64,000 nt of DNA from Phorcus lineatus (Eukaryota > Mollusca > Gastropoda > Trochida > Trochidae), in the NCBI GenBank assembly GCA_921293015.1, contig OV121084.1, forward strand, positions 27,466,946-27,530,945, in the 5' to 3' direction. Numbering within the stretch: position 1 is the stretch's first letter; each line of letters starts with the position of its first letter. The position numbers were made by a program, and so were the translations under genes. This document shows, piece after piece, positions 2,579 to 63,876 of this stretch. The notes beneath the pieces were generated by a model, which saw only the letters and a program-made list of their open reading frames with translations, searched no databases and was not told where the DNA came from.

Positions 2579-2667
2579 GATTAGTAAAATGAAATCACGA
2601 TAACTAAAATAAAGGTTACCATTTGTATTTTGTGAGACAATGTTTTACTATCAAAAGAAGCAGTAAA

Positions 2668-12479: not shown

Positions 12480-12485
12480 TTTATT
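12480..12485 (-). terminator. Poly(A) signal AATAAA of PLAT gene copy A
   Basis: Canonical AATAAA on the minus strand about 22 nt after the stop codon at 12,508, giving a very short 3' UTR. The same hexamer sits at the same offset in copies B and C. Confidence 0.7.
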
Positions 12486-12507: not shown

Positions 12508-15500
12508 TTAGAAACCACCTCCGTCAAAAAAATCTCCGAAATCACCAAACAAATCCCCCATGAATGAAGGTTCGTTTTCGTTGCTCGTCTCATCCAGGAT
12601 TGATTGTTCAATTCCCCTGTCCATATGTCCAAATACATCGAGAAGTGATAGTTCATCTTTCATGGCCCTTTGTTTCTTGTTCTTATTTTTCTGTTTCTTT
12701 TTCTTGTCTTTTTGTACCCCTTTCCTGACTTTCTGTTCTCTTTTCGAAACTGCCAGTTCCTTTCTCAATTCGTTCGTCCGAAGAACGGGAATCCAACAGC
12801 TACATTTAAAATAGTAGTCTTCAAATTCAGGAACTCCTCTTCCATTTAGATTTGTTGATCCATGTTGTGATGTTTTCGAATTTAGAAGTCTATCTTTTTC
12901 ATCTCGAGACAAATATCGTCTTATGGTTACCTTTAAAATAAAAAAGCCACCTAATTGTCAACAAATATCAATAACTTCCAATACGACTTGTGTATAAATT
13001 GTATATATAGATATTATTATTTTACGACAAAATGTTACACTTGTTTCAATATCAATTCTCGTAACATATTCTCTAAACTAAAGCACAAATTTAACAAATT
13101 AAAGAGCCCCTCCGTGAGTCGTTGGAGTCATATATGCCAAACTTAATCAATGGTGTCATTTGATAGCGAAGTATCGACTGTTACCAAAAAGAAACATTTT
13201 AAAGCTTATTGGTTTTTACAGTGACAATACGAAGGTAGAACGTCTCAATTATGATCGAAAACCGGACAGTGGCACGCGTCAAATAGTCAAACGTAATTTG
13301 GGAATCTTATGTAAAACTGCCAGGAGGGCAGCTAAGAGTTGATAGCGTTTGTTAGGTTATATATTAACTAGTATCCATGTATATTGGACGTAATATCTAT
13401 ACCTCTGTGCATTTATAAGGCTGATTTTAGATTTTCATGAAAACCAGTATTTGTCATGTATATGTCTTTTGGACATGAAACGTTAAGATGTTTTGATGTT
13501 ATATCACCACATATAGGTTTGTATCAAAGGTAAATAATATGTTATGGAAATCAAGGAGTGGCTCTTTAAGAGAAGGAGAACACCTCCCTGTTAGTTCCAT
13601 ATATCAACTTCGCTTGCATGGCATAACTTGCGCCAGTCCATTTGTTTGACTAATTTAAACCTTTAATTTAAACCCAGCTTTTCGGTGCCTGCTCTCCAAG
13701 CTGATGCGATTGATTTGATACTCTAATGATACATCTAATGATAATTGCCACCTTTCGTCGAAGAGGACGCTGCTCTCAAACCTTGAATTTTAGCGTTAGC
13801 AGCATGACTTATATAAGCCATAGGTCCTGCGCGAGTAATTGCCTTGCGGGGGAAGTTGGTGTGTATATGTAGGCCGGCACTACCATGCCTCCTAGATAAG
13901 GAAATAAAGCTTACATCTACGAGATACCAGTCCGGAGAGTTCCGATATCCCCCATTGTCGTGGCCAACATTGATTCTTGTCACTGGACCAACGTCTATTG
14001 CATTCAACTAAAGAATAAACGCATACTTTATTTACTTATATAATATATATTAATCAAATGTTGTACTGATAAAAAATCAACCCAGTTATTCATCACATAA
14101 ATACATGCACACATACATACAAACATGCACATATACATACATACTTACATACACACACAAACATACAATCATACATCCATGCACACATACATACTCAATA
14201 CATACATAAGATAGCATTCTATTATATGAAATGCTAAATACTATTTTCTCTGTTCTCTCATCAATTCTATATCTTACCTGAAACAGACTGTATCTTCCCT
14301 TCTCAAAGTTCGCCCAGGGATTTTCAAAGAATATTTGGCCAGTTGTCCCTCTTTCTCCAACTAACTGTATATAGACATGCGCGTCAGTGCCTGCCTCTTT
14401 CATATTACCTGTTCGAACTCTCACCCGGTACTGCACTTCATATCCTTTCACTGTTGATAAGCATTGAGGCAAAGTTATGTATTTGGTAAAGGGACTATGA
14501 AGTGATGAAATCAGATCTTAAACCACTGGTCATTTTAACCTAGAGAGAGTTGATGTCAAAAGAGTTTTACAGTTTCCTTTCTAGTGTTTCCGAAATGCAG
14601 AAGGTAAATGGAGGTTCATCAGTATTTAGAAATCAAGATTAAAATGCTTATATTTACTGCGCTCTTAATCAATATAATGTCTTGAGTTTTTACATGACAT
14701 TTCAATTGACGTCAAACATTTGATCTTACATGCCCATCCCATCTCTCCCCATAGATGTAGCCCAAGCAATAAAATCTTATGCTAACCTCTGTATAATACA
14801 ATCATATATAGGATATTCTGCATATTCCCCTAGCGGCAAACGAATGCAGCACAACATATCTTCAAATTTCAGCCAATGAAAACAAATCTTTTATTGAAGT
14901 TTGCCTGTAGTAAACATGATTCAGCCGCCTTATAACGTCTTTGCCAAGTGCATAGACGAATGAATTCGCGTTTTTCCGAAGCATACAACAGTGACAAGGG
15001 ATTTCTGAATATTGCTTTAGAAACCTCGTCCCTGATCGGTCCACTAACTTTGACTGCATCCACCCAAGCTTCTACATTCAAAACTCGTACGTGCTCATGT
15101 TAAACCATATGTTAGGCAAGAATTTCATTACTTGAGCTACTTCTGTAGAGATATTTAAGCGCAAAATGCCATATATGTATATATTAGTTAATAAAACAAA
15201 CTCAAATCTGTGACTCTTTATGCTATTGATAACTATATATCTATAGCTAAATCATCCTGCTAAATCAGCGTATATGAATCCGCTCTCGCTCCTCCCTAAT
15301 ACCCTGATCTCTTTCGGGCCAAAAGGATGTAGCTCAATCCGCCATTTAAACAGGGTGTGAGAATGGATGAGATAACATTGTCTAAATGGGGAAATCCAAA
15401 GTATAAGTTTTATCAGAAAAAACCCCCAAATTCTTCGACGTTTCCACGTAAGATCTTAATTTTAAGAACACCAATCAAAGAAGTATTATTTTTAAATAAT

Positions 15501-18500
15501 CACTCAGTGAGTTGCCACTATTGAGTGATGTAAGACACCCTTCATCAAAGGAGTCAATCCATTGAGTAGTGTATAATGACTGTTGGTTAAATCTATCATT
15601 TTAAAGGTAATCGGTTTTCATGTTTTTACAGTGATAATATGAAAGTAAAAATGATCGAAAACCGGACTACACCGCGTGTTCATTTGTTAAACGTATTTAG
15701 GAAATTTAACTTAATTAAAGAGTTGAAAGAGTTTAATAGGTTATATAACTAGTATCAATGGACGTGTCATCTCGGCTCCTGCGCATATATAATGACGTTT
15801 TTAGATTTACATGCAAAACAAATATTTATAGATAGTTGTCATTTGGGGATGAATAATTTCGATATTTTAAATTTTATCACCACATACTGAATTAAGCTTC
15901 TGTTCAAACCCCCAAAAATATGTCATGAAAAAAACGGAGTGTGTTTTAAGCTTACCTTCACTGGTGAATTTTAGATCCTTGACTGTTTTTCCCGTCCCCT
16001 TTTCCTGAGACAGCCAACATTTACAATCAAAGGTGTATGTTTCAGACAAATGACTCTTTAAGACCTTGTCTTTTCCACCTGCATAGTTCTTATCTCTAGA
16101 TGCCTCCTCTTCCATTTTATCCAGTACTTGAGCTTGTTCCACTTTTGACAAGTACCTTGTTACCTTTACCTTAAAAAAGTATGAATAGAGGGATTCTTTC
16201 GGTTGCATGAGAAAAAAAAATCAAAATCACACAATTAAAGTTATATGATGAAATAATATCAGTATGATTAAAATAGACCGTGGCCCAAGGAATAAAAAGT
16301 TTTTATAATTTATATTGACTAGCGGGATTCGAACGTTCTCTAACGAGGGCTTTCCTCTCCACAATGGTCTGATATCAGCCACGCTGCTCGCACGTGAAAT
16401 AAGGATGGGTATCGGTTCTCATTTCCATATCGCAATATATTGCGATACAGAAAAGCGTATTGCAGTACGTATTGCAATATATTGGTAGTTTCCATATTTT
16501 ACTTTTTCCATGTTGTGATGACCAAATAATAGCAATTAGAACAGTGATCAGTACTCAACTAGACGCCTTTTTGTAAGAGAGATAATTAAGTGACTCGTTT
16601 CGTACTTTTAACATGTCTGTGCTATTTCCACTTTGCACGTTCACACTTTGTTTACAACTTTTAGTAAAATCATAGGATGTTTTTCTTATGTTTTTCTGCA
16701 ATTTAACACGGAAAGTGTTCATTCTAAAACCTCCGATATATTGGATATTTTCAGAAGACTGTACCGGTACGTATCGCGTTGTTTCTGTATTGCAATATAC
16801 CGATATATCGATACTTATGAAGCGGTATTCTGTTATCAACCCGTTGCAAATTGATGAAGGTTATATCATTGATAATGAATTCATCCTACACATGCATGAG
16901 GACTATTCCACACCCTTGGTCCAATTTGGTTAGAATTTAAACAAAGAAGTTAAAAACCTGAAAGGCAGCAATGTACATTATTGAAACCATGTTCCAATGC
17001 ATCTGTTATTTGTCAATGAGCTGGGCCATATTGTCTTTTAATTCTGGCCCGGAAGCTAATTTTTATGAAAGACAAGAAACCCCTAAAAGCACAACTTTAT
17101 ACGATGCTTGTTCAACTAACCATGTTTAAAAGAGTTAGGCTTTATGGACTTTGAGTTCTGGTCGGGTGACAAAACACTAAATTGCAACTATATGGACACC
17201 GCCTAAAAAGAAAGTTAAGAAGAAGTTGAAAATCCCAAAAAGGTATCACTACACATGATTTATTTTAGTGTAACAAGTTTTAAATCTTTTTTATTTCTGG
17301 CACGGAAACAAAATTCAAAATAGTGTTTCTCTGGCATCCGTCAAAATAAAGTATGTACAATTTTAAAACCTAAAAAGGCACTACCTCATATAATAATTGT
17401 TCAATGCCATGAAAACTAAACCTCAAGGCTAGTTAGAAAAGAAAACCCGTATGGTCGTGAATTAAGCAATATCTCAGCCATTTCAGGTCATTTTTATACA
17501 ACCAACCAATTTCGCTGTAGCAGGGAAAAACTAAATACTCACTTCCTCAAGGAACCAATCCGGGCTAGGACCGTGGTTGTCATGACCGATAATTATACGT
17601 GTCAGTGGGCCGACATCTTTTTCTTCCAGCTAAAGGACAAACAGATGAATTCTAATGCAAAGCATTTTTCTCCATAAAATTCCCAAAAGGCAAAATTGAT
17701 TTTTGATTCAAGAAATATTAATTAGATAACGAGGTATCATCATATAACCAACTGAACATCAAAGAAGCTGTAAACAATGAAAACCATCACCTAGCAAGAC
17801 GACATTTGACGTACTAGAATATATTTATTCAATGACAATGAGAAGGTTGTAGGATTAAGAAGAATCTTCCCCACAAACCTCATGGCTACGTTAACTCACT
17901 ATTTGTTACCCATTTTCTCCACAGGTAAGCTCCGTAAGATAAACCTTTACTTACCTTTGTTTAGCCTTTTTGGGCAATCAAATCTATTTCCGTTTGCTTT
18001 GGGAAACCATAATTTTATTCCAATGTGCAATTTCCACTTAAAGGGTCATAGAGTGTTGGTGTCAAATAAGTCATAATGGCGTTATTTTATCGATAAGTAG
18101 TTGGTTTTTCTGAAAATCAGTATCTAACTTGCTTATTGGTTCAATATTGAGACAACAAAGAGGTTTTAGTCGCGATATGTGATCGAAAACCGGACAGTGG
18201 CGCGCGTCAATGACTCAAACGTAATTTTAGAAACTAATTTCAAACAGACACAAAGATGAATATTGATATGTAGTGTTTAGTAGGTCATTTAAGTCACAGG
18301 GGCGTGTATCGCTTAGAAATAGCTTTAGAAAGACATACCTGTAGACCCTACCCTACTACTAGGGTCTATAGGTATATATGAGTAGGGTAGGGTCTATAGG
18401 TATATATGTCTTTCTAAAGCTATTTCTAAGCGATACATGCCCCTGTGATTTAACTAATAATACTAACTAAATTTTATTAGAGTATTAGAGCCACACACAA

Positions 18501-21500
18501 AATCTTAAAATAAACTCTGTGTCACCTTTTAAAGTAATCAGTCTCCTTATAGAGAGAGAGCTTCATTGCATAGGCCTCGGTGACAACAAAAATACTATTA
18601 ATGCACTCGGTGTATTCCGAAATATTGCAAGATATATTTTGCCGCTAGGGGAACCTGCCCGTGAAGAACTCGCATTACAACAGAGGTTTACCCTGAATTT
18701 ATTACAGTGCTACCTCTATTGGAAGAGAATGTCTCATACCTTGAATGTTTCAATCAGTCCGGCCTCAAAGTTGTTGTCGTTATCATCCAAGGTTATATTT
18801 CTGCTTTCGCCTTTCGTCCCAATAAACTTTATATATACATTGGCGTCCGAGCCATCATCCTCCCCGTCGCCTGTGTGCAATGTCACTTCGTACCGAATTT
18901 CTCCCACTGTAAATCACATACTATATGAACTAAACAGCTAATGTTTTCAATGAATAAAGAAAAGATTAGGTTTTCTTATCGTTTTTATCTTATGCATAGT
19001 TTATATAACGTTTCCAATGTATGATTACTCTTTGTGCAGATTTATGATAGAAATATCAAGTTCATTTCTTGATCTGTTAAGGCGGGTAATTTTTCCGTTG
19101 AAGTGAAATAACATTAAATCACTCACCGCTAATCCTATAATAGAATGTTTTTTTCAACCCAGGGGCCTCTTCAACAACGCTTATCTTGGTTATTTTTCAA
19201 TTATTTCTACATTTCACTAACTTTTGTGTGAGAAAGATGCCAGTGTTAGTACGTATTTAAGCTTACTTTTAAAATTGAGTTCCATTCCGGTGGCGTGTAA
19301 TTCCTTGTTAAGTACTTTCTTCCCCCCGTCTATTGCTAACCAACATTTACATTCAAAGAAATATTCCTCGTGATCTGGAATCTCTAACACCATGCCGTTT
19401 CTAGCAAACACTTTTTCGGTAATGTTGTTGATTCTCACGCCTGCAATTCTTTCTTCCTTTTCCTTCTGATTGACATCTTCTTTTGGTCCATTTTCTCTCA
19501 TCTTTATTTTCACCAGCCATTCAACTTGTTCTGTTTTCGACAGATATCGATTCACCTTAACCTAAAAATCAATGCAAAATATTTATACGTTCGTACAACA
19601 TAGGTTAAAACGAAAAAAGTAAAATTTGTAAATTTGCATTATCCCTCTCACGTTTATGTTGCAATTGATTTAATGAAAAGAAATTTTACGTTTTGTGAAT
19701 TACATTTCAACTCTGTTTTTGGGGTTTAAATATTTTGATATATGACATTGTTCAGATATTGGCATGCGTATCATTAGCAAAAGACAAAATCAATACAGAA
19801 AATGATTTCCTCTAGTACAGCTGGTTCCATTCAGTCTATGGGTACTGAACTATCACTTCCCTCGATACCTCTGTTACATTCTTTAAACATCGAGAGTATT
19901 GAACTAACATCATCGCCGTCTTCCCCCTCATGGCTTAAAAAGTCTAAATCCCTGGCTAATTCAAACCTTGCTGTTAACCCGAAAGAATTCATGTGTTGTG
20001 TGCAGTGCCCTCTTCAGCGAAACGTTGAAATTCTCACATGGTTTCTCATTGGACTATCGCGATACACGGCAGCCTGGGCGACAAGCACAGAAAAGTACTG
20101 GAAATGCGGCAAGGCTTATCTTAGCAAGTTACTGGGCCTGGCGAAAGTATAGGCAATGCGTGGGAAGATGCAACTTAACAGGAAGGCTCTGTTATATTCT
20201 ATCAACATAGAGTGTACTGAACTATCACCTTAACAGGTGACCTCTGTTGCAAGTGCACATAAAAAAGGTCGTTGAATACACATGATGGTACAATCCAACA
20301 CTTCCAAAGTATCACAATCCAACACTTCCAAAGTATCTATCAACTTGAAAAGCAATCCTTTCTGAAGCTGATGACAATATATTGAAACCATCCATAGAGT
20401 AGTTTTCGAGAAGTCACATCCGAAAGTGGATACCGGGTTGATGATACTGGATAAATGACTGATGTTGAAAAGCAGGAACATTGATGTCAGTGGAGCCTAC
20501 GTTTCAAGAAAGTAATACTTTGATCTTGTTTTCTACGAACTATTCGATTTATCCTCGTACACTATCTCTATATAGAGTGAACTTATCTCAGACTTCCCGC
20601 TAAAATATATGTTACAATTAATTCCTGAAGTCGAATCTCCTTATGTTACCTCTTTTATACATGGACCATCTTATCCTTAAAACCTCTAAGTCAACAGGGA
20701 TACCGTCTTTACTAACATACAGTAAACACGTCTTAAATCACTTAAGATGTTGAATTTAATATGCGGGCAACGCACATGTGAAGGAACCCAAGTCACACTG
20801 AAAGCCGAGGTTTGATCTAGAATGGAAGAATTCAGGTTTACGGGTGAATTTGATCGGTATGGGTGTTTCATTATCAATCTATACAGTGTCATTATTTAAT
20901 AGATAATTTAATAAAAACTTACATCTTCGACAAACCAGGCAGCGTAGAAACCGCTATTATCGTGGCCGATGTTGATCGCTGTGAGCGCACCGACATCCTC
21001 GCCCTTCAACTTGTGGATAAACACATTATGAAAACATTTTTTATTCAAAGTTTGTAATTTTAGGGAATTTTTATTTCCTCTAATTGATTTGGGAATTTCA
21101 ATGGAATGCTAAATTGCAAAGTAACTGTCTAAACTCACATGTTACAGGCCTTAATCTCCGTCACATAAGTGCCACTTAAGCCATATGAGATCACTGACAA
21201 AGAGTAGTTGATAGAAATGATAATTTAAATTATTTATTCAACATATAGCATGTTTTAATTCATCTTAAATTGATTTATGAATATTTGTTCTTAAGGAAGA
21301 TATTTTTGAAAACAGCCTATTATAATCTTGACGTTCACATAACCTTGACTGCATTACGAATCAAATTATACCACAGCATTCTGTGTTAACTTCTTAAAAC
21401 GGCGGTTATACTTTGTAAACTACAAAGGGTAGCTAAATTAAAGGTAACATTGAATTTTTCCCGACCTTTAAGTCGAACCAGAAGGGAGAAAATCGCGAAA

Positions 21501-24500
21501 ATATGAAAGTCTTAATGTGTATTATATTTAAAACACTAACTAAAATGTTCATTCCTCCTTGCTTTAGATAAGTTTCCAAATTACGTCGCGACTGTATACC
21601 TTTAAATTGTCATTCTATTGAACGAAACCGATCAGCCAAAAAATGATACTTTAAAAAAAAATTCACCACTTGTCGTAAACCTGAAACAACTAAAAAGTTT
21701 TGTATATGTGATTTAAACAACTCATTGAGTTTCTCTTAAATAACCAATCATTGTGATGTAATCTAATCATTATGCAATCTCAGTAAATCATGATCAGTGC
21801 AACGTCGTGGACAAAGTTATGAGCTTATTTTAATGAGATCGATCATTTGTAGATATTTCTCTCAAGCAATAGCTACTTCGGATAAAAGTTTTGATTAACA
21901 CATATTACATTTTACTCTTTATACGATTATCTCTACTCCGTTTTTCATACCTCAAATTGTTCAACCATTCCCCTTCCAAAGAACTTCTTCTCTGGGTTGT
22001 CAATAAATATCTTTTTTGTTCTTCGCTGAGCTCCCACAAACTGTAAGTACACGTTGGCCTTTGTTTCTGCCGACAGCACATCCCCGGTATGAATTGTTAC
22101 TTGATATCGAGTTTCATCCTCTTAAATTCAGATAGACAGATAGAGTTGATCATCGACAGAGAAACACAGTTAAGGTTTGTAGATATAAATAGACAACAAT
22201 AAATCCCAAGATTTAGCGCAGCATATTGGGGTCTTCGAAGAGATAATAGTCTTAACAATTCTTAAAAAAAAATAAAAATATATAATGAAACTAGAGCTGA
22301 GTCTAAAGTATCGTGTTCTAATCGCCGAAAGCCTTGCGAATGAACCCAGGTCTTCACAATGGTAATAGGATATATGTTTAAATGTTAAATATGATACAAA
22401 GATTCTGATTGGTCAATAAATCCGATTGTAACCAATCAGGTATCGACGAAAGCTAAGACATGCGTAGATGATAAAGGAGAGATTTTGTTACGTAAAATTC
22501 AGACATCAGACAGTGACTAGATATAATCAGACCCAAACCACAATGGCGGATCCTATTGAAAAGGTTGAGGTTGGTGGAATGACAGACACATTTTGAGAGG
22601 CTTTTAAAGAGAAACTTTACCGTTACTGCAGTCTGATTAAAATCGATCGTGTTCCGAGGAATAAAGGTTTTTAAATATTAACTATAGCGGGAATTGAACG
22701 TAATCTTTACTGGGTGCTTTCCTCTCCACAACGGTCTGAAAGCATCCTCCTTGCTCGCTCGCTCTTACACCAGTTTAGCGCGCAGACAAAACCTAGTCAT
22801 TAGCGGACCAATCACATCATCTCGTTTAGAATAACGATAGCGGCGATTAAGGTTAACGAATAGTAAACGGGAGTTACCTGCCCCTAGATACTCATACTGA
22901 TAGCTTTTGCTGCTGTCATTATGATTGGCTAGTTGAGATTGCGTCAGAACGTGCGAGCAAGTAGGGTGCTTTCAGGCCGTTGTGGAGAGGAAAGCATCTG
23001 GTAGAAGACGTTCGATTCCCGCTTTAGTCAATATCAAAAACTTTTATTCGTCGGAACACGGTAGATTTTAATCAGACTAACCGTCATTGGACCAAAGTGA
23101 CAATGTTCCTACCATCATTCATTGTGTCCTTTCTTGTGAGGCTCAGTTTCCTTTGTTTCACCCCTGTTTCCTCGTCAGGTATCCAACACTGACACTTAAA
23201 GAGGTACTCGTCATGCTCGAAGACGACAAGAAGAGGGCTATCTCCATTCAATAGGTCACTAGCGAAGACATCGTCCTCGAGGCTTCCCTCTTTCACTTCT
23301 TTCCTTCCATCTTTGTTATGTCTTTTCTCTATTAATCTATTTTCTGATCTTTGTTTGAGGAATTTCTTCGTTAGTTCCAGACTTTTAACTTGTTCACTTT
23401 TTGACAAAAATCGTTTGATTCGAACCTTTAATGAAACATAAGAAAGAGTTTTAATCAAAATCAATTATACACTGTCTTTAAACTCAATATTTATTGAATG
23501 TTTGGAATATAACGTAAAGCATGTGTTATTATTTTGCATCTTGGTTTGTGATTTAAGAATGACCATAACCTTGTTTTTTTCAATTTCAACGAGATCTACA
23601 TTTAAATCATAGAATTATCGCTTCTATTCAATTAACTCTTCTTATATTCTTTCTATTAATTATTTAATATTGTAAGTTTAATTTAATTATGTCATCATAT
23701 CTTCTCTTAAAAACAGCGTTTATGGAATTTAACCAATTGACCTTGCAACCAGACATGGTATCTCTATCAAATGAATAGTACTATTTCTATAAGAGGGTTG
23801 CATCTTTTAAATAAAACCGCAGACAAGACAAATATCAGCATTGTAAAACTAAAATTCCGGGATGTTTTTAAGGCACTCATGTAAGACATCTTCGGTCTCC
23901 AATGGTTTTATGATCCGATAATCTTAAAATATCACCCCTGGGACTTTTCATCACGATAATGTGTACTTAAATTACCCGCGCTTGACACTTATTAACAAAT
24001 GAAGCGACTTGACACGAGAAGTTGGAAAGAAGTGTAAGTATACAATCCTTATGTTTATCAACTCACGAATCATTATTATCTTCATATCAAAATTTCAAAG
24101 TAATGACTCGATCGTTCTACTTTCGTGAAGTCACGTATTACATAAAATGGATAACACATTCTGAGTTCTCTCCTGCGGAACGAATTCTACTACGTCTCTG
24201 ACGTCATTCGTATCCACGTGAGATAGCGCATGCGTACTAGCCTCATTCTAGCTGCATGCCTGAAGCGTAATGAACGTCGGTCAACCTGTCCGTCGATTTT
24301 ACGTCTTTTTTGCCTCTAATACCGAGAATAGACGCTATTACTCGGTGAGTTAGTTGGTAGACGCTACCAACTTTATACCAAGTGAGCGAAATCTTGTTTT
24401 AATTACTTCCCTACCCTACCTGTCGCCTCTTTCAAGAGATTAGCTTTCAACGTGAACGTCTCTGAAACAAAATGGCGGGCCCATCCACCTCGTCGGTGGA

Positions 24501-27500
24501 TTTGGACATTGAACTGGGGGCAGAGGAGGTGTGTCTCACAACTGATGAGGATATTTTGTTAGAGGGTGACTCACCAGTTACTAAATCCTCGGAAAATAAC
24601 CAGTTGATGTCTTTCCTTGGGAAATTGAGTGACAACATGCCTCTTATGGTAGACTCTATGGCTAGCATGAATGCGGCGTGGCAGACGGCCACTCAAAACC
24701 CGGGTAAATGACCTATGAATGTTTCTGAGGTTGAAAATGGTCCAAGAAAAATTTCGAAAACTGACTCAGTTGTTTCGTCTGACGACGATGATGTATTGGA
24801 TTTAATGAGAAACAATCCACCGAGTTCGGCTTCCCCGGCTCCTGACGCGGGAAATGTGGGGCTAGACCCTGAATCGTGCGATGCTTTTTTGCAAGACATC
24901 GAGCAGTCTTATGACGTCGAAGATGTGACCTCAGAACCTATTTCTGAGAGTTTGTCCAAATTAGTTGATAAACGTTTTTCTGGTAAACTATCAGAGGACA
25001 AGATTAAAGCTTTGAATGAAAAATACCATCGGCCTTCGAATTGTGAGAAATTAAATGTGCCGAAAGTGAACTTAGAAATTTGGAAAAAGATGAACAACGG
25101 AGACAAAAGGAAAGATTTGCGTTTTTGCAACATTCAGAAATCCATCATAAAAGCGAGCATGTGTGTCTCGAAATTTGCAGACTCTGCATTGAAAGCACGT
25201 GTTGAAGGCAAAATGCCGGATTGGAAAACAATGTTGCAATTGTCAGCTGACACACTGGCCTTGCTGGGTCATGTGACCAATGAACTTTCGCTTAAGCGAC
25301 GTGAAAGTTTACGTCATGTAGTTGGTAAAGAATACGGTGAAATGTGTGCTGCACATGTGCCGGTTACCAAGTTTTTATTCGGGGACAATTTGAGCAAACT
25401 GCTTAAGGACGTCAAGGACATGAGTAAGATTGGTGGCATGATGAAAAATGATACCAAAAACTTTCCTCAGAAGAAGTCTTTTTTATTCAATCGGAACGGT
25501 CAGGGGCAGTTGAACCGTTACCAGAATCAAGGCGAAAAAACTTGGTCGAACAACAAGTTCAAGTTTCAGAAATTCTCCAAGAAGAAAGGAGAGAGGGGGG
25601 AGCAGTAGACTCCACTAGCGCCTTGAAGGTGAGTGATGTTGATACTAACTTCATCAATTATCTGATAGATAAAGTTGAACAATTTGAGGCCGGTAGATTG
25701 AGATATTATTTTGAAAGCTGGCGACAGTTGACTTCTGACCCGGAAGTTTTAGATATGGTAAAAGGTGCAAGTATTGAGCTTGAAAGTTTCCCTTATCAAT
25801 CAAATTTGCCTTGTGGCTTTAAATTTTGTGAAAGTGAAAGAGAAATTATTTCCTTGGAAATACAAAATTTATTGGGGGAAAAGGTCATTGAGTTGACTAA
25901 TCATGAATCAGGCGAATACATTTCTAATGTTTTTCTTACGCCTAAGAAAGATAATACATTCAGAATGATTTTGAACTTGAAAAGTTTCAATAAACATGTT
26001 GAGTACCATCATTTTAAGATGGATTCTTTATCTTCGGCTGTCAGGCTCATGCGAAAAGGCTGTTATATGGCATCTGTCGATCTGAAAGATGCTTATTATT
26101 GTGTTCCCATAGCTAAAAAAAGACAGAAAATATCTCAAATTTGAATGGGAAGGAAAACTCTATCAATATACATGTTTTGCAAATGGGCTATGTTACTGTC
26201 CTAGGAAGTTTACAAAACTTTTAAAACCAGTTTTTTCTGCTCTTAGGAAAAAGGGCCATGTCTCCAGTGCTTATATTGATGACTCTATACTATTTGGAGA
26301 AAATTTCGGTGAATGTAAAGAAAATGTGAAACAAACTGTTGATATGATGAATAGTCTGAGATTTGTTGTTCACCCTCACAAGTCGGTGTTCAAGCCCACA
26401 CAGGAAATAATTTTCTTGGGTTTCATCTTAAATTCTGTTGACATGACAGTAAAACTTACCCGTGAAAAAAATCTAAAATTAAAAAATGCTGTTCAAAAGC
26501 TCAGAGAGAGTTATCTCCCTTTCATTAAGGAAGTCGCTCAAGTCGTTGGTCTCATGGTAGCCAGTTTCCCCGGGGTCATGTACGGCCCTCTGTATTATAG
26601 ACAGTTGGAAATAGAGAAAGCTGAGGCACTAAGTAGAGTTGGTTATGGTGGGAAAATTCCATTGAAACAAGTTACAATGTTGTAGATAGGCCTGTGCCCG
26701 AGCATATCCTCACTACTGATGCTAGTCATACCGGCTGGGGTGCTACATTAGATAGTGTTAGAACTGGGGGTCAGTGGACCCCTCAGGAGGCGTGTCTACA
26801 TATCAACTATCTTGAGTTGTATGCTATCTTAATGGCCATAAATCTTTTCACAGAGAAATTTGTGGTAAGAGTGTTAAAATCCTGAGTGATAATACAACTA
26901 CCATCTCGTGTATCTCCCATATGGGAACTAGTCACTCAAAATTGTGTAACAGTGTTACAAGACAGATATGGGAATTCTGCATATTAGAAAATATTTGGCT
27001 GACCGCTTCTCATATACCTGGTATTCTTAATGTTGAGGCTGACTTTGAATCTCGAAAAATTCGCCAAGAAGCTGAATGGAAACTGAATGAGCAAATTTTT
27101 ACTCGACTGTTTAAAAGATTGAATCACTTTCCTAATGTTGATTTATTTGCCTCAAGATTAAATTATCAACTGAAGCCATATATCTCCTTTTTGCCAGATC
27201 CAGCAGTTTATGCTGTCGATTGTTTCTCTGTCTCGTGGAAAGATTATGATTTCTATGCTTTCCCTCCTTTGAGTATAATACCGCTGGTGTTGCAGAAAGC
27301 AGAGGGGGAGGGGGCGACGGGGACGATCATTGTTCCTTACTGGACAACGCAGACCTGGTGGCCACGCCTTGTGAGGTTGCTTATAGCCTATCCAGTGCTA
27401 CTACCCAAGGGGCAGAGGACTCTAGTACTACCCAGTCAACCAAAAGAAGTTCATCCTTTGCACAAAACTCTAAGACTTGTAGCATGCCGCTTGTCGGGCA

Positions 27501-30500
27501 ACTGCTTGATGGTAAGGGACTTTCAAAGCGGTCTACAGAGATTATCGCTAGAAGCTGGCGACCAAGTACACAGCAGCAGTACTCAACATATCTTAAACAG
27601 TGGCAGTTGTATTGCAGTAAACGGCAAGCTGATCCCTTTTGTTCACCTGTAGAACTTGGAATTGACTTTCTTGCTGAACTTTCTCTGAGATGTGGTTATA
27701 GTGCTGTAAATACCGCGAGAAGTGCTCTTTCGAGTATTATCTTACTACCGAACAACAGAACTTTTGGGGAACACCCGCTTGTATGTCGTTTTATGAAAGG
27801 ACTGTTTGAGGTTAAGCCTTCTGTTCCGCGATATACAGAGATTTGGGACCCAAATACCGTTTTGAAATTCATTAAGAGTCAAGACACTTCAGTGATAAAT
27901 TTGAAAGAGTTGACCTTAAAGCTGGTGATGTTGTTAGCGCTAGTCACGGGCCAGAGATGTCAGACTTTAAGGCTGTTAAAAATTGATAACATGAAAGAAT
28001 TCTGTGACAGGGTTGTGTTTGTGATAACTGAATCTGTGAAACAATCTAAACCTGGCACTCATGTGCTGCCAGTAGAGCTCGTGCCTTATGAGGACTCTGA
28101 CCTTTGTGTAGTTTCATGTTTAAAAACTTATTTACAAAGAACTGAAACTCTGCGATCTGACAACCAACTACTTGTGAGTTACCAGAAACCGCATGGTCCT
28201 GTGTCGTGCGACACAATAGGAAGGTGGCTTAAGTCTGTGTTAAAGCAGTCTGGTGTTGATACAAGTGTTTATAAGGCCCACAGCGTGAGGGCAGCCTCCA
28301 CTTCTACTGCCGTGTCTAATGGAATTCCAGTGGACATTATCATGAAAAGTGCTGGTTGGAAAAGAGAGAGTTAAATAATGATTTACAGGGAAGATTGGAT
28401 CACTTACAAATTCCAGAAACCAGCCCGCCCACTGTCCGCTGTTGTCATGTCCTATTGTAATCCCCGTCAGTGCACCAACATCGAGCCCTTGCCGCTTTGA
28501 AATGATAATTTAAAAAAAACAGTTTCTGTTTTAATTTTGTCATTTGATCTTTTACTAAATTGCAGTACAGATCTTCTTATAATGATAATATTCAGATTTT
28601 AAGTGAAGTTAATAAATATATATCATTCTCAAAAGGAATTGCTAATTAGGTAATTCTCTTCCATCTTTGCATGAACTTATTTCGGTATGACCCCGGCCTC
28701 CAAGCTGTAGAGCGAACGCTCTACCAACTGAGCTACTTACCCTGTATAGTGAGAGTATACAGCTGCAAAAGTTTGTTCACATACCTGAATATACTAGTGC
28801 AAATATCATGTAATTTGAGATGCCTTTGAGGTATTGTAGCGTTGCGAAAAAGAAACGTATAATATTGAATTTTCAATACACATATGCAGATCCAAGGCAA
28901 ATGTTTATCGTACACCACAATTACCCATGACAGTTTTGGCAGGTCATTGAAGTGACCTCGGGTCAAAATTCCGAAAACACTAATTTTTATTTTTCTCCAT
29001 AAAATCCTTTATCAGTTATCAACTTCTTTAAACATTAGTCACGTTTGTTTCTAAGCACAAAGTCAATGTGATTATGTTGGTTTTAATCTCAGAGAGTGGA
29101 TATAGAACATTTTATTCGATATTTAACGAAATCGAAATTTCGAAAATGCGACCCATTCTGTCTATAATAATATGCCAAAATTCGAATTTCAGCACGATTG
29201 ACCAGACAATGCCAAAATAATTTCACGAATGGCCATTTCACACATTGTCAGTCTTGCTGAAGTTATTCTATTGACGTTGAAACGGAACCAAAATTACTTG
29301 ATATTTGCACTAAAATTCAGTAAACTTTCGGTATGCATCTGTAAAGATATATTTGGCGATCGAAATTAAAAAGATAATGTGTCAAGGCTGGGGCTGCAAT
29401 TCGTCACATGCTATTTTGAAAACGTTCTGACATCAAACAGATAGACCGGGGTTGATAGTGTTAGAAAGATTTTGCTCGTAGGTTTCATCCCAATAATAAT
29501 CTAAAAAACTAACACTATACAATCTTATAATGAAGTGTTTCTTACATCAAAGTGGTCAGACATCCCGGCCATGAACTCGCCTTTGTCAACAGACAAGTGT
29601 ATTTTCTTCGTTTCACCCACAGATCCATGGAATTGTATAAAGACGTTTGCACTGGTACTCGCGGATGTTTCTTCACCTGTTTTCACCATCACTTCGTATC
29701 GGATCTCACGTTTAGCAACTGTGTCAACATATGAAGGCAGTCCATTAAACAGATCGGCATACTATCTATCAAATAATGATTTCCTATTTAGAACAGGGTT
29801 TTGATGCAAATTAGTCGAAGAGAATCTAGTCCAGTGGGCTTGTATCTTCGGATACAGTGTGCAACAACCTATTGGTAAGTTATAAAAATGTCCTCAACAG
29901 CAAAGCATCTTGTACAACGTGTTTTTGAAATTTATGAAACATATATCAAATATTTTGGACAAAATCGACTGATATTTACTAAAACAAGTTCATCTTGTCC
30001 AAAGTTTATATATGCTTTTTGAAACCAAAAATACTGGTATTATATAAACGTTAGCATACGGAATATACCGTACAATGCTACAATGGCATCGTCAAACTTG
30101 TACATGTAGTTATATTTTATGAAACATTTGAGAAGCCGGGTACGTTAAAATGTATAAACATATTCTCACTATAAGAGCATCTAATCTAACGTGTAGGTGT
30201 ATATAATGCAACATTTGACAGGCCTGGTAAATTACAAACATATTCTCTTTACAAGGGCATCGACTCAAACGTGTTTTATTTTATAAAACAGTTGACAAGC
30301 CTGGTAATTTATAAACATATTCTTTTTACAAGGGCGTCGATTCAAACGTGTTGTACTTTATGCAATATTTGACAAGCCCGGTAAATTATAAACATATTCT
30401 CATAACAAGGGCGTCGATTCAAACGTGTTGTATTTTATGAATCAGGGAGAAAGTCTGATATGTTACAAACAAGTACTCACTACAAGGGCATCTAGTCCAC

Positions 30501-30748
30501 TGTGTTCCTGTTCCCCCGGTCACTGTCTCCTCTCTGTTGATTTTACAGACCTTATTACTCTTGTTATATACAAACACATCACAGTAAAAGTCCTGCTGGC
30601 ACTTAGAGAAACAGCTGAATAAGCTCTCCGTGGCCTTTATCTCCTCTAGAAATTGTTTTTTTCCTTGTAAAGTTGCACATTTGCAAGTGTTTAAGTTGCT
30701 CACACGTGTTACACAACATATCAAACTAAATAAAATTGGCAAAATCAT
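12508..30748 (-). CDS. Secreted PAN/apple-like plus four-PLAT-domain protein, copy A (13 exons, about 849 aa)
   Basis: Minus-strand exons: 30748-30481, 29718-29546, 28494-28408, 23425-23113, 22120-21951, 21009-20923, 19561-19267, 18906-18740, 17629-17543, 16169-15956, 14450-14278, 14007-13915, 12930-12508. Together they give 2,550 nt with consistent phases and no internal stop. Exon 1: hydrophobic signal peptide (MILPILFSLICC) and a Cys-rich PAN/apple-like domain (about residues 22-89; ESLFSCFSKC, VFVYN.SNKVC). Then four PLAT/LH2 domains (about 93-275, 283-455, 467-615, 623-760), each made by three exons: N-third (YEVxVxTG..ANVFIQ), middle third (VGxLTxIxIGHDNxG...WFLE), C-third (V.I.R.LSK.EQ, a variable charged insert, then Y.F.C.CW). 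The tail is Lys-rich and then Asp/Phe/Gly-rich, ending FDGGGF. Family knowledge: PLAT domains are beta-sandwiches binding lipids or proteins; LOXHD1 has many in series. The specific role is unknown; extracellular or membrane-surface binding is inferred. Intron 3 carries a DIRS-like element. Confidence 0.88.
13099..13569 (+). mobile_element. Family 1 TTAA element in intron 12 of PLAT copy A
   Basis: Element 13,103-13,565 between TTAA at 13,099-13,102 and 13,566-13,569. Ends AGAGCCCCTCCGTGAG and CAAGGAGTGGCTCT are slightly decayed inverted repeats. Same inside and orientation as the copy at 2.1 kb; carried into units 2 and 3 by the segmental duplication. Confidence 0.85.
14095..14205. repeat. 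CATA/CACA microsatellite in intron 11
   Basis: Imperfect run of CATACATA and CACACATA units. Its length differs between the three gene copies (shorter near 59,704-59,795), as expected of a slipping microsatellite. Confidence 0.85.
15486..15953 (+). mobile_element. Decayed family 1 TTAA element ending at the exon 10 splice donor
   Basis: Family 1 landmarks (GATCGAAAACCGGACTAC, GTTATATAACTAGTATCAATGGACGT, CACCACATA) appear in order, diverged. On the minus strand the intron reads GTAAGC then TTAA then AACACACTCCG, so the element's old terminus starts 6 nt inside intron 10. Also present in units 2 and 3. Confidence 0.65.
16262..16396 (+). repeat. Single arm of the foldback element family, intron 9
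   Basis: Matches one arm of the 22,630-23,078 element (landmarks ATTAAAAT, AGCGGGATTCGAACG, GCTTTCCTCTCCACAA, GCTCGCACG). Carried in unit 2 (about 38,716-38,850) and unit 3 (about 61,854-61,988). Right beside it, 16,400-16,830 contains inverted TATTGCAATATA / CGATATATCGATAC words that may be another small inverted-repeat element. Confidence 0.55.
18039..18285 (+). mobile_element. Decayed partial family 1 element in intron 8
   Basis: Starts with TTAAAGGGTCATAGAGTG, which resembles the family 1 terminus, and keeps the internal landmark GATCGAAAACCGGACAGTGG then CGCGTCAA, followed by an ACGTAATTTT stretch. The right end is lost. Present in all three units. Confidence 0.55.
18295..18447. mobile_element. 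153-bp hairpin (foldback) element in intron 8, copy A
   Basis: Two arms of about 65 bp are near-perfect reverse complements: CACAGGGGCGTGTATCGC at the left and GCGATACATGCCCCTGTG at the right, folding around a short centre that itself repeats GTAGGGTAGGGTCTATAG. CAGGGG-type ends recall hAT MITEs, but no clear 8-bp target duplication is seen, so the class is tentative. Confidence 0.8.
21490..21665 (-). mobile_element. Decayed reversed family 1 fragment in intron 5
   Basis: AACACTAACTAAAATG, TTTAGATAAGTTTCCAAATTACG and a nearby ACCTTTAAATTGTC follow the order of the reversed family 1 copy at 31,421-31,828, with many changes. The ends are not recognisable. Confidence 0.4.
22630..23078. mobile_element. 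449-bp foldback element beside exon 4, copy A
   Basis: Arms of about 130 bp (22,630-22,760 and 22,945-23,078) are diverged reverse complements, ending AGTCTGATTAAAATC and its complement. The right terminus lies 35 bp from the exon 4 donor at 23,113. No coding content and no clear target duplication. The same element is in unit 2. Confidence 0.8.
24183..28374 (+). mobile_element. DIRS-like tyrosine-recombinase retroelement, copy A (broken fossil)
   Basis: Family: DIRS group, judged from the parts. An inverted-type terminal repeat lies at the left (from 24,183), then a gag-like region (about 24.47-25.6 kb), reverse transcriptase (about 25.6-26.7 kb), RNase H (about 26.7-27.0 kb), the degenerate methyltransferase-like stretch usual in DIRS (DLFASRLN, YAFPP words), and a tyrosine recombinase (about 27.5-28.37 kb). 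It is broken in about three or four places and its right end is not present. It sits in intron 3 of PLAT copy A, opposite in strand to the gene. The insertion predates the duplication that made copies A and B, since both carry it at the same site, yet it is still well preserved, so it is fairly young. Confidence 0.85.
28684..28742 (-). repeat. tRNA-like segment (D-arm and A box), SINE head or tRNA pseudogene, intron 2
   Basis: On the minus strand, TAGCTCAGTTGGTAGAGCG is a textbook tRNA D-arm and A box. The part that should be the T-arm (GGGGTCATACC) departs from the B-box consensus and the anticodon arm does not form. A second copy is at 51,854-51,913. Confidence 0.45.
30070..30490. repeat. 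80-bp tandem repeat grown from the exon 1 splice donor, copy A
   Basis: About six units of roughly 80 bp (landmarks ACAAGGGC(A/G)TCGA, then AACGTGTTGTATTTTATG, then ACAAGCC.GGTAA, then AACATATTCTC) run up to the exon 1/intron 1 border; the last unit contains the true donor and the last codons of exon 1. Earlier units hold decayed copies of that border. Copy B has about five units. Confidence 0.75.
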
Positions 30749-30806
30749 GCCTTTTTCTACGAGTAATTCCGTTGATAAAGGATGGGTCTTTCAACTTCTA
30801 CTTGGC

Positions 30807-30814
30807 TATATATA
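30807..30814 (-). promoter_or_regulatory. TATA box of PLAT gene copy A
   Basis: Minus-strand TATATATA followed by GCC, about 60 bp upstream of the start codon at 30,748. A transcription start about 30 bp downstream would leave a 5' UTR of about 30 nt. Identical in copy B. Confidence 0.6.
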
Positions 30815-34960: not shown

Positions 34961-37900
34961 TTAGAAACCACCTCCGTCAAAAAAATCTCCGAAATCACCA
35001 AACAAATCCCCCATGAATGAAGGTTCGTTTTCGTTGCTCGTCTCATCCAGGATTGATTGTTCAATTCCCCTGTCCATATGTCCAAATACATCGAGAAGTG
35101 ATAGTTCATTTTTCATGGCCCTTTGTTTCTTGTTCTTATCTTTCTGTTTCTTTTTCTTGTCTTTTTGCACCTCTTTCCTGACTTTCTGTTCTCTTTTCGA
35201 AACTGCCAGTCTCTTTCTCAATTCGTTCGTCCGAAGAACGGGAATCCAACAGCTACATTTAAAATAGTAGTCTTCAAATTCAGGAACTCCTCTTCCATTT
35301 AGATTTGTTGATCCATGTTGTGATGTTTTCGAATTTAGAAGTCTATCTTTTTCATCTCGAGACAAATATCGTCTTATGGTTACCTTTAAAATAAAAAAGC
35401 CACCTTATTGTCAACAAATATCAATAACTTCCAATACGACTTGTGTATAAATTGTATATATAGATATTATTATTTTACGACAAAATGTTACACTTGTTTC
35501 AATATTAATTCTCGTAACATATTCTCTAAACTAAAGCACAAATTTAACAAATTAAAGAGCCCCTCCGTGAGTCGTTGGAGTCATATATGCCAAACTTAAT
35601 CAATGGTGTCATTTGATAGCGAAGTATCGACTGTTACCAAAAAGAAACATTTTAAAGCTTATTGGTTTTTACAGTGACAATACGAAGGTAGAACGTCTCA
35701 ATTATGATCGAAAACCGGACAGTGGCACGCGTCAAATAGTCAAACGTAATTTGGGAATCTTATGTAAAACTGCCAGGAGGGCAGCTAAGAGTTGATAGCG
35801 TTTGTTAGGTTATATATTAACTAGTATCCATGTATATTGGACGTAATATCTATACCTCTGTGCATTTATAAGGCTGATTTTAGATTTTCATGAAAACCAG
35901 TATTTGTCATATATATGTCTTTTGGACATGAAACGTTAAGATGTTTTGATGTTATATCACCACATATAGGTTTGTATCAAAGGTAAATAATATGTTATGG
36001 AAATCAAGGAGTGGCTCTTTAAGAGAAGGAGAACACCTCCCTGTTAGTTCCATATATCAACTTCGCTCGCATGGCATAACTTGCGCCAGTCCATTTGTTT
36101 GACTAATTTAAACCTTTAATTTAAACCCAGCTTTTCGGTGCCTGCTCTCCAAGCTGCTGCGATTGATTTGATACTCTAATGATACATCTAATGATAATTG
36201 CCACCTTTCGTCGAAGAGGACGCTGCTCTCAAACCTTGAATTTTAGCGTTAGCAGCATGACTTATATAAGCCATAGGTCCTGCGCGAGTAATTGCCTTGC
36301 GGGGGAAGTTGGTGTGTATATGTAGGCCGGCACTACCATGCCTCCTAGATAAGGAAATAAAGCTTACATCTACGAGATACCAGTCCGGAGAGTTCCGATA
36401 TCCCCCATTGTCGTGGCCAACATTGATTCTTGTCACTGGACCAACGTCTATTGCATTCAACTAAAGAATAAACGCATACTTTATTTACTTATATAATATA
36501 TATTAATCAAATGTTGTACTGATAAAAATCAACCCAGTTATTCATCACATAAATACATGCACACATACATACAAACATGCACATATACATACATACTTAC
36601 ATACACACACAAACATACAATCATACATCCATGCACACATACATACTCAATACATACATAAGATAGCATTCTATTATATGAAATGCTAAATACTATTTTC
36701 TCTGTTCTCTCATCAATTCTATATCTTACCTGAAACAGACTGTATCTTCCCTTCTCAAAGTTCGCCCAGGGATTTTCAAAGAATATTTGGCCAGTTGTCC
36801 CTCTTTCTCCAACTAACTGTATATAGACATGTGCGTCAGTGCCTGCCTCTTTCATATTACCTGTTCGAACTCTCACCCGGTACTGCACTTCATATCCTTT
36901 CACTGTTGATAAGCATTGAGGCAAAGTTATGTATTTGGTAAAGGGACTATGAAGTGATGAAATCAGATCTTAAACCACTGGTCATTTTAACCTAGAGAGA
37001 GTTGATGTCAAAAGAGTTTTTACAGTTTCCTTTCTAGTGTTTCCGAAATGCAGAAGGTAAATGGAGGTTCATCAGTATTTAGAAATCAAGATTAAAATGC
37101 TTATATTTACTGCGCTCTTAATCAATATAATGTCTTGAGTTTTTACATGACATTTCAATTGACGTCAAACATTTGATCTTACATGCCCATCCCATCTCTC
37201 CCCATAGATGTAGCCCAAGCAATAAAATCTTATGCTAACCTCTGTATAATACAATCATATATAGGATATTCTGCATATTCCCCTAGCGGCAAACGAATGC
37301 AGCACAACATATCTTCAAATTTCAGCCAATGAAAACAAATCTTTTATTGAAGTTTGCCTGTAGTAAACATGATTCAGCCGCCTTATAACGTCTTTGCCAA
37401 GTGCATAGACGAATGAATTCGCGTTTTTCCGAAGCATACAACAGTGACAAGGGATTTCGGAGTATTGCTTTAGAAACCTCGTCCCTGATCGGTCCACTAA
37501 CTTTGACTGCATCCACCCAAGCTTCTACATTCAAAACTCGTACGTGCTCATGTTAAACCATATGTTAGGCAAGAATTTCATTACTTGAGCTACTTCTGTA
37601 GAGATATTTAAGCGCAAAATGCCATATATGTATATATTAGTTAATAAAACAAACTCAAATCTGTGACTCTTTATGCTATTGATAACTATATATCTATAGC
37701 TAAATCATCCTGCTAAATCAGCGTATATGAATCCGCTCTCGCTCCTCCCTAATACTCTGATCTCTTTCGGGCCAAAAGAATGTAGCTCAATCCGCCATTT
37801 AAACAGGGTGTGAGAATGGATGAGATAACATTGTCTAAATGGGGAAATCCAAAGTATAAGTTTTATCAGAAAAAACCCCCAAATTCTTCGACGTTTCCAC

Positions 37901-49900: not shown

Positions 49901-51258
49901 GATAACATGAAAGAATTCTGTGACAGGGTTGTGTTTGTGATAACTGAATCTGTGAAACAATCTAAACCTGGCACTCATGTGCTGCCAGTAGAGCTCGTGC
50001 CTTATGAGGACTCTGACCTTTGTGTAGTTTCATGTTTAAAAACTTATTTACAAAGAACTGAAACTCTGCGATCTGACAACCAACTACTTGTGAGTTACCA
50101 GAAACCGCATGGTCCTGTGTCGTGCGACACAATAGGAAGGTGGCTTAAGTCTGTGTTAAAGCAGTCTGGTGTTGATACAAGTGTTTATAAGGCCCACAGC
50201 GTGAGGGCAGCCTCCACTTCTACTGCCGTGCCTAATGGAATTCCAGTGGACATTATCATGAAAAGTGCTGGTTGGAAAAGAGAGAGTACTTTCCAAAAAT
50301 TCTACCGTAAACCGGTTGTATCATTGAAAAATTATGGTTCGATGTTTTTGCAATCTTTGAATTTAGTTAATGATCAATTAAATTTGGGTATCTAACCCTG
50401 ACATATAATGTCTTTGTCGTGATTGTTGGTATTTTCTTCATGGACCCATATGCTTTCAAGTCTCACGTGGATACGAATGACGTCAGAGACGTAGTAGAAT
50501 TGATAATCAAATGAGCCTTACCTGTAAGGTGAAGGTTGATTGTAATTCTACGTAGTCTCTGAAAGGAATGGAGTATTCACGTGCCCTCGCAGAGCACTGG
50601 TATTAACCCACCCATACAAGAATACTCCAAATATGTGTCCATTCAGTTTTTTTAAAGAATGAGGCTAGTACGCATGCGCTATCTCACGTGAATACTCCAT
50701 TCCTTTCAGAGACTACGTAGAATTACAATCAACCTTCACCTTACAGGTAAGGCTCGTTTGATTATCAATTCTACAGTACAGCTTTCGATCACTTACCCAA
50801 CAAGTCAGAAGTAGCAACGATCCAAAATACTGGTTAACTTCAAATAGCATGGGATGTTACGGAAGCACCCTAGTAGGATGGAGATAAGCGTAAATAATGA
50901 TTTACAGGGAAGATTGGATCACTTACAAATTCCAGAAACCAGCCCGCCCACTGTCCGCTGTTGTCATGTCCTATTGTAATCCCCGTCAGTGCACCAACAT
51001 CGAGCCCTTGCCGCTTTGAAATGATAATTTAAAAAAAACAGTTTCTGTCATTTGATCTTTTACTAAATTGCAGTACAGATCTTCTTATAATGATAATATT
51101 CAGATTTTAAGTGAAGTTAATAAATATATATCATTCTCAAAAGGAATTGCTAATTAGGTAATTCTTTGAGTACTTCTCAGTGTCATTTTACTCTAACTAC
51201 CCTTTTCTTGGTCTGCACTTTTGTATATGTGTATCTCATCTCTATATATTTCCATGCA

Positions 51259-51318
<60 letters not shown>

Positions 51319-63221: not shown

Positions 63222-63876
63222 CTAAAGGACAAACAGATGAATTCTAATGCAAAGCATTTTTCTCCATAAAATTCGCAAAAGGCAAAATTGATTTTTGATT
63301 CAAGAAATATTAATTAGATAACGAGGTATCATCATATAACCAACTGAACATCAAAGAAGCTGTAAGCAATGAAACCATTACCTAGCAAGACGGCATTCGA
63401 CGTACTAGAATATATTTATTCAATGACAATGAGAATGTTGTAAGATTAAGAAGAATCTTCCCCACAAACCTCATGGCTACGTTAACTCACTGTTTGTTAC
63501 CCATTCTCTCCACAGGTAAGCTCCGTAAGATAAACCTTTACTTACCTTTGTTTAGCCTTTTTGGGCAATCAAATCTATTTCCGTTTGCTTTGGGAAACCA
63601 TAATTTTATTCCAATGTGCATAATGTGTCATAGAGTGTTGGTGTCAAATAAGTCATAATGGCGTTATTTTATCGATAAGTAGTTGGTTTTTCTGAAAATC
63701 AGTATCTAACTTGCTTATTGGTTCAATATTGAGACAACAAAGAGGTTTTAGTCGCGATATGTGATCGAAAACCGGACAGTGGCGCGCGTCAATGACTCAA
63801 ACGTAATTTTAGAAACTAATTTCAAACAGACACAAAGATGAATATTGATATGTAGTGTTTAGTAGGTCATTTAAGT

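What the first reader, a model, noticed from the sequence alone, without database searches (positions are those of the whole stretch)
12508..30748. A secreted protein family joining a PAN/apple-like domain to four PLAT domains, with a conserved insert motif
Assembling 13 exons gives an 849-residue protein with signal peptide, one Cys-rich PAN/apple-like domain and four PLAT domains. Every PLAT domain carries, between its middle and last thirds, the motif R-(F/Y)-L-S-(K/R)-x-E-(Q/K) followed by a variable Lys/Glu-rich insert and then Y-x-F-x-C-x-C-W. Seen directly: all four copies have it (RFLSKSEQ, RYLSKTEQ, RYLSKVEQ, RYLSRDEK). I do not recall this architecture as a named family; LOXHD1-type proteins lack the PAN domain and the long inserts. 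This is my best candidate for an undescribed system.
Basis: partly seen in the sequence, partly recalled or inferred. Interest (0 to 1): 0.75.

Follow-up and report, generated by a model that had tools for sequence, protein, structure and literature searches.

The report
Tandem secreted PAN–PLAT gene family
An invertebrate genome carries a row of similar genes for a probably secreted protein with one PAN-type domain and four PLAT domains; it looks like a local offshoot of the known LOXHD1-type PLAT proteins rather than a new kind of system.

Summary
On the minus strand, 13 exons at 30748–12508 join with GT–AG sites at all 12 introns into an 849-residue protein. Each PLAT domain is a three-exon module flanked by phase-1 introns. 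A TATA-like box lies 66 bases before the ATG and AATAAA 23 bases after the stop. All four PLAT domains carry R-(F/Y)-L-S-(K/R)-x-E-(Q/K), an insert and YxFxCxCW.

Copy 2 is wholly and copy 3 partly inside the window. Upstream of copy 6, a further gene carries one PLAT domain with the same motif and insert; no PAN of this type was found there. A PAN exon 49% identical, with the same splice phase, lies 13.7 Mb away with no PLAT exon detected nearby. In the tree the insert PLATs group together, next to a LOXHD1-type PLAT of the same genome.

I read it as a new architecture made from known parts by exon shuffling and tandem duplication. A secreted binding or scaffold role is likely but inferred. 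Spread in other animals could not be tested.

The parts
30806..30814 (-). TATATATAG, putative TATA box 66 bases before the ATG
   Evidence: present in 6 of 6 copies
30481..30748 (-). exon 1: signal-like N-terminus plus PAN/apple-like domain, 8 Cys after the signal-like stretch; ends in phase 1
29546..29718 (-). PLAT1 exon a
28408..28494 (-). PLAT1 exon b
24712..28374 (+). retroelement pieces in the P1b-P1c intron: reverse transcriptase and tyrosine recombinase, DIRS-like (label recalled); not part of the gene
   Evidence: RVT_1 E 9.7e-9, Phage_integrase E 1.8e-11, ORFs searched apart
23113..23425 (-). PLAT1 exon c: RFLSKSEQ, 63-residue insert, then FKCQCW
21951..22120 (-). PLAT2 exon a
20923..21009 (-). 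PLAT2 exon b
19267..19561 (-). PLAT2 exon c: RYLSKTEQ, 56-residue insert, then FECKCW
18740..18906 (-). PLAT3 exon a
17543..17629 (-). PLAT3 exon b
15956..16169 (-). PLAT3 exon c: RYLSKVEQ, 34-residue insert, then FDCKCW
14278..14450 (-). PLAT4 exon a
13915..14007 (-). PLAT4 exon b
12508..12930 (-). PLAT4 exon c: RYLSRDEK, 28-residue insert, then FKCSCW, then Lys-rich and Asp/Gly/Phe-rich tail to the stop
12480..12485 (-). AATAAA, putative poly(A) signal 23 bases after the stop
   Evidence: present in 6 of 6 copies
34961..53861 (-). tandem copy 2, same 13 exons, 849 aa open
58119..64000 (-). the five 3' exons (P3b to P4c) of tandem copy 3; the gene runs on beyond the window

Best explanation
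Shown: a tandemly multiplied gene family for a PAN + four-PLAT protein whose PLAT modules are symmetric 1-1 three-exon cassettes. Inferred origin (about 0.8): an insert-bearing PLAT like the one in the neighbouring LOXHD1-type gene was duplicated to four, joined in phase 1 behind a signal-plus-PAN exon like the one at C7:13.79 Mb, and the whole gene was then copied in tandem to six. Inferred mechanism (about 0.4): the protein is secreted and works as a multivalent extracellular binder or scaffold, for example in a mucus, cuticle or matrix layer. In that picture the PAN docks on a protein or glycan; the four PLAT beta-sandwiches bind lipid or protein partners, two of them (P3, P4) keeping the acidic G(S/T)D of the loop that I recall as the Ca2+ loop; the charged inserts project from a surface hairpin as flexible linkers; and the eight PLAT cysteines (two per domain) plus the PAN cysteines allow disulfide bonds within or between molecules.
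For: Exon phases and GT-AG; six copies with TATA-like box and AATAAA; fewer nonsynonymous changes than expected in 8 of 13 copy comparisons. Origin: G7iii is 50-57% identical to each of P1-P4, while P1-P4 are 37-47% identical to each other; insert PLATs group at 94.3/95 and with LOXHD1-type L003 at 99.3/100, away from the seven other PLATs sampled. Motif pattern not clearly enriched outside the array: 188 genome matches, 19 of them in it, leaving 169 against 160 for the reversed control pattern. Lone PAN exon: 49% identical with the same phase-1 gtgagt donor, no PLAT exon found in 20 kb around and below it, in the next 10 kb (best match E 0.69) or in the whole-genome list at E up to 0.01. Function by analogy: a LOXHD1-like protein is listed in the tube proteome of the tubeworm Paraescarpia (PMC8476170, passages); PLAT domains interact with lipids and proteins (PMC8051682, passages) and show Ca2+-dependent membrane binding in some lipoxygenases (PMC7436259, passages).
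Against: No RNA or protein evidence of any kind. Signal peptide not tested with a predictor. PAN full-protein score is just below the Pfam cut-off, and the AlphaFold2 model of the PAN exon is poor (mean pLDDT 50.9), so its fold search says nothing. Two of four PLATs (P1, P2) lack the acidic residue of the GTD motif. 5 of 13 copy comparisons show no selection, and the comparisons are not independent. The Paraescarpia protein is only labelled LOXHD1-like; I did not see its sequence. Copies 4-6 are cut short or out of frame. The branching within P1-P4 and G7iii is unresolved (support 77.8/57 or less), and the tree has one non-family LOXHD1-type PLAT only. The whole-genome list missed a weak PLAT piece of the neighbouring gene that one search shows, so a divergent PLAT near the lone PAN exon could be missed too.
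Confidence: 0.55

Rival explanations
1. It is a plain member of the LOXHD1 family with a sensory or ciliary role inside cells; the PAN exon is a misjoin or belongs to another transcript.
For: PLAT modules are closest to LOXHD1-type L003 among the PLATs sampled; LOXHD1 is 15 PLAT repeats in stereocilia (PMC8051682, passages).
Against: Exon 1 has its own TATA-like box, lies in phase with P1a, and is kept in 6 of 6 copies. A separate many-PLAT locus on C37 is the likelier LOXHD1 gene. I did not run a gene predictor for other first exons.
Confidence: 0.15
2. It is a fast-turnover defence or stress-response family, multiplied in tandem as are the single-PLAT proteins of spider mites.
For: Spider mites show expanded, clustered single-PLAT genes, and both PLAT and PAN-domain protein groups respond to host plant (PMC6288829, passages). 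Six copies with broken members fit birth and death; copies 4 and 6 resemble copy 1 more over the exons of the 5' half (97-99%) than of the 3' half (94%), which fits exchange between copies.
Against: In the passages read, the mite PLAT and PAN proteins are separate groups; copies 1-3 are nearly identical. Diversifying selection was not tested for, and in none of the 13 copy comparisons with synonymous changes does the dN/dS exceed 1 (the 3' half of 4v6 has 0 synonymous and 2 nonsynonymous changes, so no ratio).
Confidence: 0.2
3. Part of the array is an assembly artefact: unmerged haplotypes counted as copies.
For: Copies 1-3 differ by only about 1%, a level that heterozygosity can reach.
Against: Copies 4 and 6 differ from copy 1 by 6% in exons and 9% in aligned introns of the 3' half and share their own stop; copy 6 has a 0.65-kb intron where copies 1-5 have 5.0-5.6 kb. 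More than two distinct units lie on one 62-Mb contig.
Confidence: 0.1

Closest known systems
LOXHD1 (15 PLAT repeats; hair-cell stereocilia)
   Same: Tandem PLAT domains; closest PLAT type among those sampled in this genome (L003 on C37; that C37 is LOXHD1 is inferred)
   Different: Four PLATs, signal-like N-terminus, PAN domain, RYLSKxEQ motif, 28-63 residue inserts, a second Cys (CxCW). LOXHD1 facts from PMC8051682 passages and recall.
Animal lipoxygenases / allene oxide synthase-lipoxygenase PLAT (PDB 3dy5, 2fnq, 3vf1)
   Same: PLAT similarity by sequence: P4 v 3dy5 E 4.7e-9
   Different: No lipoxygenase catalytic domain among the Pfam matches at E up to 1
PAN/apple domain proteins (Toxoplasma MIC4 apple domain, PDB 2ll3)
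   Same: Exon 1 residues 26-72 align, E 0.0019; PAN_1 25.5 bits for the exon-1 product alone
   Different: MIC4 has no PLAT domain as far as I recall; similarity is to the domain only
LOXHD1-like protein in the Paraescarpia tube proteome
   Same: Possibly a secreted PLAT protein of a lophotrochozoan matrix
   Different: Sequence and architecture not seen (PMC8476170, passages)

Membership tests
PLAT/LH2 domain (PF01477) | Profile match above the curated cut-off | tested here: met
   195.8 bits, cut-off 23; 4 stretches
PAN/apple domain (PF00024) | Profile match above the curated cut-off | tested here: inconclusive
   25.5 bits for the exon-1 product alone, 20.8 in the full protein, cut-off 21.4
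PAN/apple domain (PF00024) | PAN fold | tested here: inconclusive
   AlphaFold2 on the single sequence: mean pLDDT 50.9; no Foldseek match at E 0.001 or better
LOXHD1 | About 15 tandem PLAT repeats and nothing else | tested here: not met
   Four PLATs plus PAN
LOXHD1 | PLAT modules of LOXHD1 type | tested here: met
   Groups with L003 at 99.3/100; the other 7 PLATs sampled fall outside. L003 as LOXHD1-type is my inference from its many-PLAT locus
Lipoxygenase | Catalytic lipoxygenase domain | tested here: not met
   Only PLAT, PAN_1 and a sub-threshold DUF7755 match at E up to 1
Secreted protein | Cleavable signal peptide | tested here: inconclusive
   Hydropathy only; no predictor on hand

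The most novel reading that the evidence does not exclude
A lineage-specific class of secreted, disulfide-rich extracellular matrix or mucus proteins, made by joining a signal-plus-PAN exon to four copies of one insert-bearing PLAT cassette, in which the hairpin insert and the extra Cys turn a membrane- or protein-binding domain into a cross-linking matrix module; likely relatives of both precursors (an insert-PLAT gene next door, a PAN exon 13.7 Mb away) survive in the same genome.
Probability: 0.3. Interest if true: 0.5.

Novelty: new variant of a known kind. Interest (0 to 1): 0.3.

Why it matters
It looks like a clear case of exon shuffling with likely intermediates still in place: symmetric 1-1 PLAT cassettes, an insert-PLAT gene next door and a PAN exon apart from any detected PLAT. 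If the secreted role is right, it adds a domain order to the invertebrate extracellular protein repertoire. It does not open a long-standing question by itself.

Tried and rejected
Looked for the motif elsewhere in the genome: not clearly above the reversed-pattern control outside the array; this pattern does not catch P4 (the Arg at its fifth place is coded CGA), so other codon forms and divergent motifs could be missed, and only the first places are listed. Looked for PLAT exons below the array (L009 and window 1–12000): none listed. Looked near the lone PAN exon (L026–L027; L028; whole-genome list): none found. AlphaFold2 on the PAN exon alone: poor model, Foldseek matches meaningless. Literature: no PLAT or lipoxygenase as a whole word in the main text of the limpet adhesive paper (PMC7333891, term search); a coral skeletal protein with a PLAT domain is of the PKD1/REJ type (PMC4890752, passages); LOXHD1-labelled transcripts in pearl oyster growth data (PMC11270918, passages) say nothing on architecture; the sea anemone matrisome paper mentions PAN/apple and no PLAT in its main text (PMC12549020); the one 'plat' in a mussel paper is a broken word (PMC6877631). 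Species: COX1, an ORF that I read as COX2 and one that I read as ND2 lie side by side on one strand of C74, with TGA read as Trp; from recall this fits a lophotrochozoan, perhaps a mollusc; not established. ARAGORN with the bacterial code found no tRNA there.

Rows dropped or redone: exon ends were wrong and replaced; rows L001, L002 and L004 were read on the wrong strand, and the tree was redone with all 13 rows and the insert cut out of the family rows. One search tested 5 of the 13 comparisons; one search tested all 13 (half counts rounded).
Full report
WHAT WAS CLAIMED. A 13-exon, 849-residue minus-strand gene at 12508–30748 with a signal peptide, one PAN-like and four PLAT domains, and a shared motif plus insert in every PLAT.

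THE GENE IS THERE. Exon 1 ends in phase 1; each PLAT is coded by exons a, b, c with phase 0 inside and phase 1 at both ends, save that the last exon c ends in the stop. This symmetric form allows cassettes to be duplicated or moved without losing frame (established knowledge of exon shuffling). TATATATAG lies 66 bases before the ATG in copy 1 and AATAAA 23 bases after the stop; both are present in 6 of 6 copies.

IT IS ONE OF SIX. The window is C7:27466946–27530945 of a 958-Mb assembly in 74 contigs. Laying the window together with 160 kb of fetched neighbours, all 13 exons recur six times on the minus strand over 159 kb. Copies 1–3 are open over 849 residues and differ little (exon identity of copies 2 and 3 to copy 1 is 99.2–99.9% by half). 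Copies 4 and 6 share a stop in the tail that removes the last 68 residues; copy 5 loses frame in P3b. In copies 4–6 the first six exons are 96–100% identical to copy 1 and the last seven 91–98%, which suggests exchange between copies. Of 13 comparisons between copies, 8 show fewer nonsynonymous changes than expected (p below 0.01) and 5 give no evidence; they share copies, so they are not independent, and the test assumes equal rates for all base changes.

DOMAINS. Pfam finds four PLAT stretches (195.8 bits, E 3.6e-58); PAN_1 is over its cut-off for the exon-1 product alone (25.5 v 21.4) and just under it in the whole protein (20.8). Against solved structures P4 matches coral allene oxide synthase–lipoxygenase (E 4.7e-9) and P3 polycystin-1 (E 9.3e-7); exon 1 matches the MIC4 apple domain (E 0.0019). 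The AlphaFold2 model of exon 1 is too poor to use.

THE MOTIF AND INSERT. All four third exons carry the motif at residue 5. Inserts are 63, 56, 34 and 28 residues long, counted from the end of the motif to the start of the FxCxCW match; charged residues (Lys, Arg, Asp, Glu) make up 26 of 63, 22 of 56, 13 of 34 and 7 of 28. In L003, an ordinary PLAT of this genome, the same place is a hairpin of about ten residues. Of 5 last-third strands on C37 that my patterns brought out (4 in L029; 1 in L003), none has the motif, an insert or CxCW. So YxFxCxCW is the normal PLAT strand with one extra Cys; the rest is family-specific as far as seen. Genome-wide, the motif's DNA pattern gives 188 matches, 19 of them in the array region, and 169 outside against 160 for the reversed control.

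WHERE IT CAME FROM. Upstream of copy 6 lie PLAT pieces that I read as one further gene with probably three PLATs; two of the pieces are weak matches (E 0.007 and 0.14). One piece, found by the weaker match, has an ordinary short last third (VVTNMQTDQSWEFVCKDWL). The last PLAT carries RYLSKAEQ, a 92-residue insert and FFECKCWL and then reads into a stop. That last PLAT (G7iii) is 50–57% identical to each of P1–P4, which are 37–47% identical to each other; the five group at 94.3/95, joined by L003 at 99.3/100, away from seven other PLATs. L003 is the only non-family LOXHD1-type PLAT in the tree, and the order inside the five is not resolved. A search with exon 1 lists 17 places: the six copies, one relative at C7:13789418–13789672 (49%), and ten weaker ones on other contigs or far away on C7 (E 4.7e-4 to 0.82). 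None lies in the neighbouring gene. The 49% relative has a signal-like start and the same phase-1 gtgagt donor; no PLAT exon was found in the loci fetched around it or in the whole-genome list at E up to 0.01, though that list also missed a weak PLAT piece of the neighbouring gene. The simplest account is fusion of such a PAN exon to duplicated copies of an insert PLAT, followed by tandem duplication. The direction of change is inferred.

HOW IT MAY WORK. Shown: the architecture, the cysteine layout (two per PLAT, eight in exon 1 after the signal-like stretch, two more inside that stretch) and the charged inserts. Inferred: secretion; binding by PAN and PLAT; Ca2+ dependence at most in P3 and P4, since P1 and P2 lack the acidic residue of the GTD motif (the role of that motif is recalled); cross-linking by cysteines. 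Support by analogy is thin: a LOXHD1-like entry in a tubeworm tube proteome (PMC8476170, passages) and general statements on PLAT binding (PMC8051682, passages; PMC7436259, passages).

LIMITS. No animal proteome, transcript or relative genome could be searched: states that this genome has no relatives here. The absence of a named family rests on Pfam, NCBIfam (prokaryotic) and the listings of nine full-text searches of an open-licence library. The species was not established.

VERDICT. Observation confirmed; interpretation partly supported; a new variant of a known kind, interest 0.3.

Noticed in passing
window 24712-28374, + strand: Retroelement with reverse transcriptase and tyrosine recombinase matches (DIRS-like, label recalled) in the P1b-P1c intron. 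Megablast shows it in copy 2 as well. This intron is 5.0-5.6 kb in copies 1-5 and 0.65 kb in copy 6, so it probably entered after copy 6 split off, or copy 6 lost it.
   Followed up: partly
window 9056-11496: A long minisatellite, self-matches at steps of 39 bases and about 90% alike, open in several frames for over a hundred codons; a trap for gene callers.
   Followed up: no
window 5887-7080, - strand: A 398-residue open frame matching 7tm_7 chemosensory receptor (26.5 bits, cut-off 26.6); a 640-base stretch overlapping it (6796-7435) recurs 94% alike beside the other tandem units at 33572-34211 and 56718-57357.
   Followed up: partly
G000:C37:30116136-30178422: A locus with many PLAT exons on the + strand over 62 kb, probably the LOXHD1 gene of this animal.
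   Followed up: partly
G000:C5:6866301-6917498: Another cluster of PLAT exons, not studied.
   Followed up: no
C7 array copies 4-6: First six exons 96-100% identical to copy 1, last seven 91-98%, as if the 5' half had been exchanged between copies.
   Followed up: partly
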